This document shows, piece after piece, positions 7,187 to 52,232 of a stretch of DNA of 54,952 nucleotides. The first letter of the stretch is position 1. The number at the start of each line of letters is the position of its first letter. Source of the stretch: Eubacteriales bacterium (GTDB taxonomy: Bacteria; Bacillota; Clostridia; Oscillospirales; Oscillospiraceae). The stretch covers positions 1 to 54,952 of the forward strand of contig JAUNND010000003.1 of assembly GCA_030531595.1 (NCBI GenBank), in the 5' to 3' direction. The position numbers and the translations under genes are program-made. The notes below the pieces were generated by a model. That model saw nothing but the letters and a program-made list of their open reading frames with translations, was not told the DNA's origin and did no database searches.

Positions 7187-7261
7187 GTAGGGCGGGGGCT
7201 TGCTCCCGCCGTTACCTCGTAAAACAACCAGATTTTCGGCGGGAGCAAGCCCCCGCCCTAC
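7187..7261. repeat. 75-bp palindromic repeat, copy B
   Basis: Canonical arms GTAGGGCGGGGGCTTGCTCC and GGAGCAAGCCCCCGCCCTAC enclose a 25-bp centre. Pairing extends outward through CTCC/GGAG (7183-7265). It fills most of the spacer between the histidine kinase gene and the DUF1385 gene. Confidence 0.92.
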
Positions 7262-10231: not shown

Positions 10232-10306
10232 GTAGGGCGGGGGCTTGCTCCCGCCGTAACCTGATGCCAACTTCAACTTTTCGGCGGGAGCAAGCCCCCG
10301 CCCTAC
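10232..10306. repeat. 75-bp palindromic repeat, copy C
   Basis: Canonical arms, exactly 75 bp, lodged between recA and recX and ending only 11 bp before the recX start. It may form a hairpin in the recA-recX message and weaken recX expression. No separate recX promoter is visible. Confidence 0.92.
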
Positions 10307-29741: not shown

Positions 29742-29816
29742 GTAGGGCGGGGGCTTGCTCCCGCCGAAAAGTCGGAGTTTTCGGTAGGTTACGGCGGGAG
29801 CAAGCCCCCGCCCTAC
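29742..29816. repeat. 75-bp palindromic repeat, copy E
   Basis: Canonical arms, extended outward as AACTGTAGGG and CCCTACAGTT. Located between the divergent UDG and murC genes, 41 bp upstream of the murC -35. Confidence 0.92.
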
Positions 29817-44728: not shown

Positions 44729-44862
44729 CAATGTCATTTAGTTAAAGATTTTTCACTGTAGGGCGGGGGCTTGCTCCCGCCGAAAAGTCAGGGTTTCCGC
44801 AGTGTTACGGCGGGAGCAAGCCCCCGCCCTACGGTCACAGTTTTCTTAACTTAATGACATTG
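44729..44862. mobile_element. 134-bp MITE with terminal inverted repeats and 11-bp target duplication
   Basis: The ends are CAATGTCATTTAGTTAA (44729-44745) and the complement of CAATGTCATTAAGTTAA (44846-44862), 16 of 17 matching. Flanking direct repeats GCTTTAGCGGG (44718-44728 and 44863-44873) look like a target-site duplication. The 75-bp palindrome is the core. There is no coding capacity, so any movement needs a transposase supplied from elsewhere. Confidence 0.75.
44758..44832. repeat. 75-bp palindromic repeat, copy G
   Basis: Canonical arms, exactly 75 bp, at the centre of the 134-bp element 44729-44862. Confidence 0.93.
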
Positions 44863-44882: not shown

Positions 44883-45116
44883 TTATCGGGCTATCGGGAT
44901 AAGGATGTTTCGACCGACCTGTATTAAATCGGGATCGGTTATGTTGTTCAGGCGTTTCAAAACATCCACATTGGTGTTATACCTGTAAGCCAGTCTGGAA
45001 AGAGTATCGTTCTTCCCGATTATATGTGAGAAATACGAGACGCCGCCCAGCGTAACGATCGGATCGTTTTGTGCGCCGCCGGTCACAGCTTCAAGCTCGG
45101 AATCGTCAAGTATCAC
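44883..45116 (-). CDS. Double-glycine-leader peptide with LysM domain (1)
   Basis: This 77-residue protein starts at a GTG (45116) with GGAGGAAGAACT upstream. Residues 1-14 (DDSELEAVTGG core) form a double-glycine leader of the kind cut and exported by peptidase-containing ABC transporters. After GG-A, residues 28-76 form one LysM domain (FSHIIGKNDTLSRLAYRYNT, then VLKRLNNITDPDLIQVGRNI and LIPI). LysM binds N-acetylglucosamine in peptidoglycan or chitin. The predicted mature product is a secreted 62-residue glycan-binding miniprotein. It is last of three tandem leader-bearing genes. Confidence 0.85.
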   Translation of the reverse strand: MILDDSELEAVTGGAQNDPIVTLGGVSYFSHIIGKNDTLSRLAYRYNTNVDVLKRLNNITDPDLIQVGRNILIPIAR

Positions 45117-45137
45117 AGTTCTTCCTCCTGCGAGCGA

Positions 45138-45374
45138 TCACATCCAGCCGCTCTTTTTGGTATTCACGGGAACACGGAGCTTCCAGCCCACCTTGATAAC
45201 ATCGGGATTGGTGATGCGGTCTTTGTTGAGAGCCATGAGAGTGGCTACCGTGGTTCCGAAACGCATGGCAATAGCGGAAAGGCTGTCGCCGGGAACAACT
45301 TCATACGTGAATGTGCTTACTGTATCATTTCCACCGGAGATCTGCTCCAGTTCTTTTTCATTGAGTTGATCCAT
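45138..45374 (-). CDS. Double-glycine-leader peptide with LysM domain (2)
   Basis: This 78-residue protein has leader MDQLNEKELEQISGG (1-15), then a short NDTVS spacer and one LysM domain (FTYEVVPGDSLSAIAMRFGT, then LMALNKDRITNPDVIKVGWK and LRVPV), ending in a basic KKSGWM tail. AAAGGAGAAAAAATC precedes the ATG at 45374, identical to the site before the next gene upstream. The frame is open to 45593, but that part overlaps another gene of the set and lacks a leader. No exporter gene lies nearby. Confidence 0.87.
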   Translation of the reverse strand: MDQLNEKELEQISGGNDTVSTFTYEVVPGDSLSAIAMRFGTTVATLMALNKDRITNPDVIKVGWKLRVPVNTKKSGWM

Positions 45375-45399
45375 GATTTTTTCTCCTTTCAGGCTGTGA

Positions 45400-45639
45400 T
45401 CACATCTGGAGATAGCATCTGTCCGTCCAGCCCACAGCCGTGTTGTTGCGCCAGAGACGGTATTTGCAATTGGTGCCCGGAGTAGCGACATATTCGGCAG
45501 TGATGCCGGACTGCCAGCAAATCGCATTGTAGGGGCCATCGGTGCGCAGGGCATTTCCCCAATAGGGTCCGGTAACCACGCAGGGATTACCAACGCCGCC
45601 GGTTACGCCTTCAAGTTCTTTTTCAGTAAGTTCTGCCAT
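45400..45639 (-). CDS. Double-glycine-leader peptide, Cys/aromatic-rich core
   Basis: This 79-residue precursor has leader MAELTEKELEGVTGG (1-15), closely like its two neighbours. The core of 64 residues is not LysM. It is rich in Gly, Trp, Tyr and Asn, with four Cys (NPCVVTGPYWGN, NAICWQSG, TNCKYRLW, DRCYLQ) that could form two disulfides. Its family is not recognised. It could be a bacteriocin, a signalling peptide or a small secreted carbohydrate-binding protein. It is first in the three-gene operon and shares the AAAGGAGAAAAAATC start region with the middle gene. Confidence 0.8.
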   Translation of the reverse strand: MAELTEKELEGVTGGVGNPCVVTGPYWGNALRTDGPYNAICWQSGITAEYVATPGTNCKYRLWRNNTAVGWTDRCYLQM

Positions 45640-45673
45640 GATTTTTTCTCCTTTTATTATTTAATTTTTTTAT

Positions 45674-45691: not shown

Positions 45692-45741
45692 CCCTTAGTA
45701 CGTTCTGCAAAGCAAAATGTTACAGTGGTTTTGAAAATTTC

Positions 45742-45900
45742 TTAAAACTCCGGGACTCTCTCCATGCGGACGAGATTGTTGCTGAATAATTTATTAAATT
45801 ATTCAAAGTCCGGAACTATCTTCATGCGGACGAGATTGTTGCTGAATTATTTATTAAATTATTCAAAGTCCAGAACTCTTTCCATACGAACAAGTGTGAG
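45742..45900. repeat. Tandem triplication (60-bp period) of the G1P dehydrogenase 3' end
   Basis: Three direct copies in exact 60-bp register. The copy at 45859-45900 is the coding tail (LVRMERVLDFE-stop on the minus strand). Two further copies lie beyond the stop. Read in the matching frame they encode LVRMKIVPDFE-stop and LVRMERVPEF-stop. They are separated by AATAATTTAATAAAT-like linkers. Confidence 0.9.
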
Positions 45901-47097: not shown

Positions 47098-47129
47098 GAT
47101 AAATTACCTCTTTTATTATATGTTTTTCC

Positions 47130-47204
47130 GTAGGGCGCTGGCTGTCTCCCGCCGTAACATCGCGGGAAATCCAACTTCTCGGCGGGAGCAAGCCAGCGCC
47201 CTAC
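47130..47204. repeat. 75-bp palindromic repeat, copy H, with compensatory changes
   Basis: The left arm has GGGCGCTGGCTGTCTCCCGC and the right arm has GCGGGAGCAAGCCAGCGCCC. Compared with the canonical GGGGGC/GCCCCC segment, both arms changed together (GCTGGC/GCCAGC), so base pairing is kept. Exactly 75 bp. Confidence 0.92.
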
Positions 47205-47211
47205 AATTTGC

Positions 47212-50148: not shown

Positions 50149-50940
50149 CTATATCGTTGTAATGATCTTTCTGGGGCATATCTCGGCGCAGTGACCGCAG
50201 CTCGTACACTTTGCGGGGTCGATACGCGCCAGATTGTCCGTAACGGTGATCGCGCCCGCCTCGCACTCGCGCTCGCATTTTTTGCACCCTATGCACCCGA
50301 CCCTGCATACCTTCATCACAAGAGCGCCCTTGTCGGTATTTGAGCAGGCGGGATATACCCTCTGCGTATCGGGAAGGAGCTTTATAAGGCTCTTGGGGCA
50401 CGCCTCCGCACACGCACCGCACCCGACGCATTTTGAGACATCGACCTTCGCCGCGCCGTTTTCAACGTGCATCGCGCCGAATTTGCAGGCTCTTTCGCAG
50501 TTGCCGAGCCCTATGCAGGCAAAGGTGCACATTTTACTGCTCTTGCCGCCGAATAGCATCGCCGCACGGCAGTCAACGGGACCGGAGTAATTGAAGCGCT
50601 CTCCTGTGTTCTCCGTGCAGCCGGAGCAGGCAACGAAAGCGGCTTTTTTCTCCGATGTACCGGCGGAAACACCCATGATCTCCGCTATTTTTTCGGCAGC
50701 CTCCGCACCGCCCGCAACGCATCTGTTGACCGGCGCTTCGCCCTTTGCGACAGCGGCGGCATAGCCGTCACAGCCCGGAAAGCCGCAGCCGCCGCAGTTT
50801 GCGCCCGCGAGACAGGAGCGCACCTGCTCCTGCTTCGGGTCGACCTCAACGTGGAATATTTTAGATGCAAACGACAGCAGTGCGCCGAATACGCCGCCCA
50901 ATACAGCCAGAACAAGAACGGAAAACAGGATCGTTTTCAT
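50149..50940 (-). CDS. rnfB: Rnf complex subunit B (ferredoxin-type)
   Basis: This 263-residue subunit has one N-terminal membrane helix (2-24), a 4Fe-4S domain with NCGGCGFPGCDGYA (about 49-62) and then four ferredoxin-type Cys groups (CTFACIGLGNCERAC, CVGCGACAEACP, CRVGCIGCKKCEREC, CTSCGHCAEICP). It accepts electrons from reduced ferredoxin and passes them into the membrane part of Rnf, a ferredoxin:NAD oxidoreductase that pumps Na+ or H+. It is the last gene of the rnfCDEAB operon. Confidence 0.96.
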   Translation of the reverse strand: MKTILFSVLVLAVLGGVFGALLSFASKIFHVEVDPKQEQVRSCLAGANCGGCGFPGCDGYAAAVAKGEAPVNRCVAGGAEAAEKIAEIMGVSAGTSEKKAAFVACSGCTENTGERFNYSGPVDCRAAMLFGGKSSKMCTFACIGLGNCERACKFGAMHVENGAAKVDVSKCVGCGACAEACPKSLIKLLPDTQRVYPACSNTDKGALVMKVCRVGCIGCKKCERECEAGAITVTDNLARIDPAKCTSCGHCAEICPRKIITTI

Positions 50941-50955
50941 TTTCTAACCTCCCGC

Positions 50956-51540
50956 TCAGAATATCTTCATGCCGGAAAAGCCCATGAACGCCAGCGCCAG
51001 CAGAGCCGCCGACACAAGACAGATCGGGAAGCCCTCAAAGCACTTGGGATACTCGGCAAACTCGACCTTCTCGCGCACGCTGGCAAACAGCACGATGGCG
51101 AGCAGGAAGCCGACGCCGCCGGTCACGCCGTAGACAACGGACTCGATAAAATTATAATTGTTCTGCACGTTCAGCAGCACGACGCCGAGAACGGCGCAGT
51201 TTGTGGTGATAAGAGGAAGATAGATGCCCAGCGCGGAATAGAGCGTCGGGACCATCTTCTTGAGAAACATTTCAACGAACTGGACGAGCGCGGCGATGAT
51301 AAGGATGAACGCGAGCGTTTCCAGAAACGCAAGACCCATGGGGACGAGTATGTATGTATCGACCACCCAGCATATCGCGGAGGCCAGACCCATGACAAAG
51401 ATGACGGCAAGCCCCATGCCGGCCGCGGTGTCGACCTTATTTGAACAGCCGAGGAAGGGACAGCAGCCTAAAAACTGCGAGAAGATGAAGTTGTTTATCA
51501 AAATAGCGCCCAGAGAGATGGAAACTATGTTCATCATCAT
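50956..51540 (-). CDS. rnfA: Rnf complex subunit A
   Basis: This 194-residue membrane subunit has six spans. NNFIFSQFLGCCPFLGCSNK (about 16-35) and LPLITTNCAVLGVVLLN (about 108-124) carry the Cys residues that with RnfE hold a membrane [2Fe-2S] cluster. The start ATG overlaps the rnfE stop (51537-51540). rnfB follows after 15 bp. Confidence 0.95.
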   Translation of the reverse strand: MMMNIVSISLGAILINNFIFSQFLGCCPFLGCSNKVDTAAGMGLAVIFVMGLASAICWVVDTYILVPMGLAFLETLAFILIIAALVQFVEMFLKKMVPTLYSALGIYLPLITTNCAVLGVVLLNVQNNYNFIESVVYGVTGGVGFLLAIVLFASVREKVEFAEYPKCFEGFPICLVSAALLALAFMGFSGMKIF

Positions 51541-52232
51541 TCGTCTTCCGCCTCCTTTGCTTCAGCTGCTTTAAGCTCCGCTTTTTTCTTCGCTTTCGCG
51601 GTGAAATACTGCATCACGGCGATCAGGACGCCGAGGGTGAGGAAGCCGCCGAAGGGGCGGTTCAGAATACCCGCGCCGTAGTCGGGGTCAAATATCTGTA
51701 TTCCCGTGCCGGTGCCGTCGAGCGTGAAACGGAAACCGCCCGACAGCTCTATGAGACCGCCGCCGAAACGCCCGCTGCCGAAAAATTCACGGATGACGCA
51801 CATGACGATCAGTACCATCGTGTACCCGAGTCCCTGTGCGATACCGTCGATAAACGACGCGCCGACGGTGTTTTTCTGGCAGAACGCCTCGGCTCTGCCG
51901 ATGATGATGCAGTTGACGACGATCAGCGGGATGAATACGCCCAGTGCCTCGCTCAGCGCCGGAATGAACGCCTGTAAAAGCAGGTCAACGATGGTGACAA
52001 AGCCAGCGATGACGACGACGAATATGGCAAGGCGTATCTCGTCGGGGATGATTTTGCGTATGGCGGAAATGACCACGTTGCAGCAGGTCAGAATGACCGT
52101 GACGGAAAGCCCCATGCCGACGCCGTTGAACAGCGACGTGGTTATCGCCATCGTGGCGCACATTCCGATAAGCTGAACGAGGACGGGGTTATTGGTGATG
52201 AGTCCCTCTTTGAATTGCTTCCTGATGTTCAT
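51537..52232 (-). CDS. rnfE: Rnf complex subunit E
   Basis: This 231-residue membrane subunit is homologous to RnfA: NNPVLVQLIGMCATMAITTS and VFIPLIVVNCIIIGRAEAF carry the matching Cys positions. A charged Lys/Ala/Glu tail follows the last helix. The start overlaps the rnfD stop by 4 bp (ATGA). In most known operons rnfG lies between rnfD and rnfE. Here the two genes overlap directly. Confidence 0.94.
   Translation of the reverse strand: MNIRKQFKEGLITNNPVLVQLIGMCATMAITTSLFNGVGMGLSVTVILTCCNVVISAIRKIIPDEIRLAIFVVVIAGFVTIVDLLLQAFIPALSEALGVFIPLIVVNCIIIGRAEAFCQKNTVGASFIDGIAQGLGYTMVLIVMCVIREFFGSGRFGGGLIELSGGFRFTLDGTGTGIQIFDPDYGAGILNRPFGGFLTLGVLIAVMQYFTAKAKKKAELKAAEAKEAEDE

What the first reader, a model, noticed from the sequence alone, without database searches (positions are those of the whole stretch)
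44883..45639. Double-glycine secretion leaders on LysM miniproteins
Three tandem small genes encode near-identical leaders (ELEAVTGG, ELEQISGG, ELEGVTGG). Two leaders are followed by a single LysM domain rather than a bacteriocin core, and the third by a four-Cys aromatic-rich core. Double-glycine leaders direct cleavage and export by peptidase-containing ABC transporters. This implies that a bacteriocin export route delivers small peptidoglycan- or chitin-binding proteins. They may mask or bind own or rival cell walls, or act as signals. I do not know this combination as an established system.
Basis: partly seen in the sequence, partly recalled or inferred. Interest (0 to 1): 0.85.

Follow-up and report, generated by a model that had tools for sequence, protein, structure and literature searches.

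The report
Export-tagged mini cell-wall-binding proteins
A gut bacterium carries tiny genes that join an export-and-cut tag, usually seen on bacterial peptide antibiotics, to small modules expected to stick to cell walls, and related bacteria often keep such genes near the matching export pump.

Summary
Three tandem minus-strand genes (44883-45639) encode double-glycine (GG) leaders. Two cores are single LysM domains (59.9 and 49.2 bits); the third is an orphan four-Cys core.

The 92%-complete genome shows one C39 match, in an NHLM-type exporter (TIGR03796, 931 bits, cut-off 853), on another contig. Two more GG-LysM genes lie on a third contig.

Relatives make the link. In 61 genus genomes, matches to the LysM protein occur in 25 of 36 exporter-positive and 0 of 25 exporter-negative genomes. 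Of 41 exporters, 24 have LysM or CW_7 within 12 kb; 17, including this genome's, have neither. GG leaders in relatives also carry CW_7 repeats, SH3 and PepSY domains and Pfam-less cores.

Best reading: a known exporter kind has taken on small peptidoglycan-binding modules. Cleavage, export and wall binding are inferred, not shown; purpose (wall shielding, antagonism, signalling) is open. Nine searches of open-licence papers listed no paper describing GG-leader LysM proteins. An SH3 fold for the third core stayed unproven (weak profile score, failed model).

The parts
45400..45639 (-). gene 1: GG-leader protein, 79 aa; leader 45595-45639 (MAELTEKELEGVTGG), 64-aa core with four Cys
   Evidence: translation; no Pfam hit for the core; weak SH3-like order of motifs; structure model failed (pLDDT 38)
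45138..45374 (-). gene 2: GG-leader LysM protein, 78 aa; leader 45330-45374; LysM 45168-45305
   Evidence: 59.9 bits; TIGR01847 19.0 over cut-off 15.7
44883..45116 (-). gene 3: GG-leader LysM protein, 77 aa, GTG start; leader 45075-45116; LysM 44895-45026
   Evidence: (49.2 bits)
45611..45654 (-). ribosome-binding site (by eye) and leader start of gene 1; similar 44 nt at 45346-45389 before gene 2 (86%)
   Evidence: the repeat finder family D5
45346..45389 (-). ribosome-binding site (by eye) and leader start of gene 2, second copy of the 44-nt repeat
   Evidence: the repeat finder family D5

Best explanation
These are secreted mini wall-binding proteins carried by an NHLM-type peptidase/ABC exporter. 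The GG leader docks on the C39 domain, is cut after GG, and a core of 63-64 residues leaves the cell, folds outside and binds peptidoglycan, first of all the producer's own wall. Related bacteria carry a repertoire of such cargo (LysM, CW_7, SH3, others) on similar leaders. Most likely purpose: an adjustable coat of non-catalytic wall binders that changes access of hydrolases (own autolysins, lysozyme, phage endolysins) to the wall. Shown: leaders, LysM domains, one exporter, co-occurrence and neighbourhood in relatives. Inferred: cleavage, export, binding (about 0.7). The shielding purpose is a guess (about 0.35).
For: One C39 match in the genome, in an ABC protein over the TIGR03796 cut-off with a second ABC and a short HlyD-like gene beside it; C28, H102 and D118, which I recall as the C39 triad positions, are invariant in 14 relatives. 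Hydrophobic -4/-7/-12 leader residues fit PCAT recognition (PMC7018657, passages). Genus: matches to gene 2's protein in 25/36 exporter-positive and 0/25 exporter-negative genomes (p 7e-9), CW_7 in 27/36 and 1/25 (p 1.3e-8); all 25 genomes hold at least one ORF with GG leader and LysM core. 28 of 73 LysM matches lie within 12 kb of an exporter, roughly 0.8 expected; 24 of 41 exporters have LysM or CW_7 within 12 kb. Exporter-first set of 80 loci: 140 GG ORFs in 51 loci, reversed control 1; of 133 scanned, 11 LysM, 4 CW_7, 3 SH3_3. CW_7 binds a peptidoglycan fragment (PMC5705596, abstract).
Against: In this genome exporter and cargo are on different contigs (C88 against C56 and C91), so the pairing rests on relatives and on there being one C39 match; the assembly is 92% complete and may lack another exporter. 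17 of 41 genus exporters have no LysM or CW_7 within 12 kb and 4 of 36 exporter-positive genomes have neither anywhere. The Fisher tests ignore shared ancestry. In the exporter-first set most cargo is other than wall binders: 18 LysM, CW_7 or SH3_3 matches among 133, and 6 of the 11 LysM come from two loci that appear to be genus genomes. One LysM is usually a weak binder (recalled). The third core has no proven domain.
Confidence: 0.7

Rival explanations
1. Bacteriocin-like antagonists: the cores bind rivals' walls and disturb growth or division, as non-enzymatic wall-targeting toxins.
For: Leader and exporter kinds are those of bacteriocins; several GG cargo variants per genome in relatives could be an arms-race repertoire. 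A comparative study infers a toxin role for terminal peptidoglycan-binding OmpA domains, though it sets LysM apart as an adhesion domain (PMC3482391, passages).
Against: By reading, the long ORFs on either side do not look like an immunity protein (no search was run for one). GG-leader proteins secreted by Treponema denticola showed no bactericidal activity in the tests made (PMC11879956, abstract).
Confidence: 0.2
2. Signals or regulators: exported cores report on or tune wall state, for example by competing with autolysin LysM or SH3 domains, under regulator genes that lie near some exporters.
For: A protein with a response-regulator domain lies in one exporter locus (L035); similar starts, and STAS- or ATPase-like starts, were seen by reading in others.
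Against: By reading, no such gene lies next to the three genes of this window; no receptor is known.
Confidence: 0.2
3. RiPP precursors whose cores are chemically modified before export.
For: Related exporters move lanthipeptide-type precursors elsewhere (LahT, PMC6363468, passages).
Against: No LanC-like domain match in the genome (other modifying enzymes were not sought); cores 2 and 3 match the LysM model over its full length.
Confidence: 0.05
4. The GG motif is a chance feature and the proteins stay in the cytosol.
For: Exporter is unlinked in this assembly.
Against: Similar leaders on unrelated cores, 0 hits in the reversed control, co-occurrence with the exporter in the genus.
Confidence: 0.04

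Closest known systems
NHLM/NHLP export cassette (TIGR03794/03796/03797; Haft 2010, PMC2887384, passages read)
   Same: C39-bearing ABC subunit over the curated cut-off, second ABC subunit, HlyD-like gene; precursors with conserved leaders and variable cores
   Different: the three proteins here have short GG leaders without an NHLP or Nif11 leader match, and two have LysM cores; the HlyD-like gene is short and matches only positions 1-47 of 421
MAM of Faecalibacterium prausnitzii with its PCAT (PMC8836110, passages read)
   Same: protein of a gut member of Clostridia with conserved Gly at 20 and 21, its gene near a C39 ABC transporter in some strains and elsewhere in others
   Different: MAM core is not a LysM, CW_7 or SH3 domain as far as I recall; studied as an anti-inflammatory molecule
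Treponema denticola clustered bacteriocin-type signal domain proteins (PMC11879956, abstract and passages)
   Same: three such genes upstream of a bacteriocin ABC transporter, proteins detected in culture supernatant, no bactericidal activity found
   Different: LysM and SH3 occur 0 times in its main text; a spirochaete
LahT exporter (PMC6363468, passages)
   Same: substrate-tolerant C39 protease domain from Lachnospiraceae; nine precursors with rather conserved leaders and diverse cores
   Different: Nif11-type leaders and a lanthipeptide cluster
LysM proteins of Clostridia generally
   Same: PF01476 domain
   Different: in 391 class genomes at E <= 1e-13 only the window genome's own four matches extend over the leader; the others start inside the profile and lie mostly in longer ORFs

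Membership tests
NHLM exporter | C39/permease/ATPase subunit (TIGR03796) over cut-off 853.3 | tested here: met
   931.2 bits
NHLM exporter | second ABC subunit (TIGR03797) over cut-off 709.4 | tested here: inconclusive
   701.3 bits, just under
NHLM exporter | HlyD-like subunit (TIGR03794) over cut-off 156.2 | tested here: not met
   34.4 bits, positions 1-47 of 421 only
NHLP/Nif11 leader precursors | NHLP or Nif11-type leader domain | tested here: not met
   none among the NCBIfam hits up to E 1 for the three proteins
GG-leader (PCAT substrate) proteins | leader ending in GG with hydrophobic -4, -7, -12 | tested here: met
   sequence; positions from PMC7018657 passages
GG-leader (PCAT substrate) proteins | cleavage after GG and export | not testable with these tools
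   needs the bench
LysM proteins | PF01476 over cut-off 20.9 | tested here: met
   genes 2 and 3: 59.9 and 49.2 bits
SH3 domain (gene 1 core) | PF08239 or related over cut-off | tested here: not met
   no SH3 hit for this protein; the other 6 of 7 aligned GG proteins match SH3_3 at E up to 1; 92 of 5000 shuffles score as high against a profile of those six; model pLDDT 38
Class II bacteriocin | PF10439 over cut-off 27.1 | tested here: not met
   gene 2 only 13.2 bits, residues 2-21; genes 1 and 3 not listed
Lanthipeptide | LanC-like enzyme in the genome | tested here: not met
   0 matches of PF05147

The most novel reading that the evidence does not exclude
A dedicated secretion system for a mix-and-match set of non-catalytic peptidoglycan-binding modules (LysM, CW_7, SH3), a wall-masking kit that bacteria deploy against hydrolases such as lysozyme, phage endolysins or rivals' lysins, built by putting a bacteriocin leader on wall-binding domains.
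Probability: 0.3. Interest if true: 0.82.

Novelty: new variant of a known kind. Interest (0 to 1): 0.62.

Why it matters
GG-leader exporters are usually read as bacteriocin or pheromone pumps. Here many species of one genus of gut Clostridia appear to use one for stand-alone wall-binding domains, which would widen the known cargo of these pumps and give a Sec-independent way to decorate the wall. It offers short, testable substrates for C39 specificity work and a concrete question: what does a cell gain by secreting binding modules without an enzyme?

Tried and rejected
SH3 fold for gene 1: motif order (ALRT...GW...YL) looks SH3-like; hhalign against five GG-SH3 cores gave E 0.0048 but probability 7.4 (one of the five rows, L127, had been cut short at its C end by my coordinates); a profile of six full cores gave 3.9 bits with 92 of 5000 shuffles at or above; AlphaFold2 gave pLDDT 38. 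Left as unproven. No relative of gene 1 at E 0.001 in the other 101 of 102 genus genomes (one weak match over residues 1-42 at E 0.0017 in G060), none confirmed in IMG/VR, none in phage records at E 0.1; one chance-level PDB row at E 0.58. Gene 2's protein has no match in plasmid records at E 1e-8.

DNA identity of leaders against cores by global alignment was uninformative, the shuffled null was about as high; the 44-nt repeat is used instead. Promoter and terminator scan: 2 promoter-like and 1 terminator-like site against 1.6 and 1.5 in shuffles; no promoter-like site on the coding strand. A structure job for the Pfam-less 140-aa cargo (A6) was never accepted.

Literature: nine searches of open-licence PMC papers listed no paper joining GG leaders and LysM cargo; four listings showed 20 of 34, 29, 37 and 54 papers. 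The two papers that hold both 'double-glycine' and 'LysM domain', and PMC9159523, PMC10100652 and PMC5817068, were checked by passages, which do not join them. Subscription papers were not searched.

Full report
Observation. The three genes lie on the minus strand at 45639-45400, 45374-45138 and 45116-44883. Their leaders are MAELTEKELEGVTGG, MDQLNEKELEQISGG and VILDDSELEAVTGG. Cores 2 and 3 are single LysM domains (59.9 and 49.2 bits, cut-off 20.9). Core 1 has four Cys and four Trp and no Pfam match over its core. A 44-nt stretch covering the leader start and the bases before it is 86% identical between genes 1 and 2, which suggests that the leaders share ancestry while the cores do not. The leader matrix found these three ORFs and no others in the window, and none in reversed sequence; it was trained on leaders of LysM relatives from the same loci, so only the reversed control is independent.

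Exporter. The genome (2.32 Mb, 121 contigs, 92% complete) has one C39 match. It lies in a 726-aa ABC protein on contig C88 that passes TIGR03796 (931.2 against 853.3). Beside it are a second ABC protein (TIGR03797 701.3, cut-off 709.4, just under), a 174-aa HlyD-like protein that matches only positions 1-47 of 421 of TIGR03794, and a 157-aa protein with a signal-peptide-like start (by eye) and a weak LysM match (22.6 bits for the protein, cut-off 20.9, no single stretch passing). C28, H102 and D118 are among the columns invariant in 14 relatives; that these are the C39 triad is recalled. The window's genes are on contig C56 and two more GG-LysM genes are on C91; exporter and cargo are therefore unlinked in this assembly. 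Of six LysM domains found in the genome, four are in GG miniproteins and two in one 419-aa frame.

Relatives in the genus. Matches to gene 2's protein at E 1e-5 or better occur in 25 of 61 genomes. TIGR03796 is over its cut-off in 36 of 61. All 25 are among the 36; none of the 25 exporter-negative genomes has a match (Fisher p 7e-9). A check with a core-only LysM profile shows that each of the 25 has at least one ORF with GG leader and LysM core among the fetched loci (75 of 104 ORFs; the profile was built from rows of the same set, and Pfam counts the same number). CW_7 (Cpl-7 repeat) occurs in 28 of 61, 27 of them exporter-positive (p 1.3e-8); the exception is G009, 65% complete. LysM or CW_7 is found in 32 of 36 exporter-positive and 1 of 25 exporter-negative genomes. 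These tests ignore shared ancestry, the CW_7 matches were not all checked for leaders, and many genomes are incomplete.

Neighbourhood. 28 of 73 LysM matches, in 15 of 25 genomes, lie within 12 kb of an exporter; roughly 0.8 would be expected. Of 41 exporters over the cut-off, 15 have LysM, 19 CW_7 and 24 either within 12 kb; 17 have neither, among them the window genome's own (one frame-split exporter row was left out). An HlyD-like ORF was found beside the C39 ABC gene in 15 loci, the own one included. Ten neighbouring proteins of four loci were scanned with Pfam: one DUF218, one response-regulator domain, two weak solute-binding matches just under the cut-off, two M16 peptidases, four without a match.

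Cargo range. 42 sequences (the window, L002 and 40 stretches of genus genomes) held 104 GG ORFs in 41 of them: by Pfam at E 0.01, 75 LysM, 14 CW_7, 1 PepSY. The stretches were picked by matches to gene 2's protein (one by gene 1's), so the LysM share is inflated. The exporter-first set is less biased: the best 80 of at least 533 loci, exporters 64-73% identical, 140 GG ORFs in 51 of 80 loci, 1 in reversed sequence. Seven of the 140 were dropped (all with score under 12; three of them ABC fragments), leaving 133: 11 LysM, 4 CW_7, 3 SH3_3 and a number of zinc-ribbon or Cys-rich cores. L126 and L134 of that set appear to be contigs of two genus genomes (equal contig lengths) and by my reading hold 6 of the 11 LysM, so the sets overlap. 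One SH3 carrier, L127, is Sarcina sp. DSM 11001, a named isolate record. A Pfam-less cargo of about 140 aa recurs.

Breadth. With a 21-row GG-LysM profile, matches that extend over the leader (from position 3 or lower) occur only in five genomes, all of this genus, among 250 of the family at E 1e-9, and only in the window genome among 391 of the class at E 1e-13. One further GG-LysM gene was read in another genus of the family, G216. The strict thresholds may hide diverged members.

Mechanism. PCAT substrates dock by hydrophobic residues at -4, -7, -12 and -15 (PMC7018657, passages); the first three positions fit in all three leaders. LahT shows that such a C39 domain tolerates varied cores (PMC6363468, passages). 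CW_7 binds a GlcNAc-MurNAc-dipeptide (PMC5705596, abstract); that LysM binds GlcNAc-containing chains is recalled. So the LysM cores should leave the cell and bind peptidoglycan. None of this is shown at the bench. Why a cell would do it is open: shielding from hydrolases is my first choice because these domains are the targeting modules of hydrolases, but antagonism and signalling remain.

Known kind. The exporter kind and the idea of conserved leaders with variable cores are known (PMC2887384, passages). MAM of Faecalibacterium (PMC8836110, passages) and the Treponema proteins (PMC11879956, abstract and passages) are precedents for GG proteins that are not proven bacteriocins. A combination of GG leader with LysM, CW_7 or SH3 cargo was not found in nine searches of open-licence papers (four listings were cut at 20), nor in passages of five papers that held related words. 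I file it as a new variant of a known kind.

Noticed in passing
window 44755-44835, 47128-47205; also near 7197-7251, 10242-10296, 29752-29806: A dispersed palindromic element of about 78 nt (arms like GTAGGGCGGGGGCTTGCTCCCGCCG) recurs; a 14-nt motif of it has 12 matches in the window with up to 2 mismatches, 0.7 expected. REP- or MITE-like by look.
   Followed up: partly
window 45736-45855: Tandem 60-nt direct repeat, two copies 87% identical, in the gap upstream of gene 1.
   Followed up: no
L126 1166-2075, L119 4041-4964, L035 17663-18085, L074 7852-8289: A GG-leader protein of about 140 aa with a Pfam-less core (beta-rich by look) recurs near these exporters; fold unknown.
   Followed up: partly
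L146 5600-9484: Twelve tandem GG-leader genes with Cys- and Gly-rich repeat cores at one exporter, perhaps RiPP precursors.
   Followed up: no
L072 9323-9703, L151 17658-18041: LysM proteins with two GG-leader-like motifs in a row before the LysM.
   Followed up: no
window 50149-52232: Genes that look like rnfB, rnfA and rnfE in a row, from reading the translations only.
   Followed up: no
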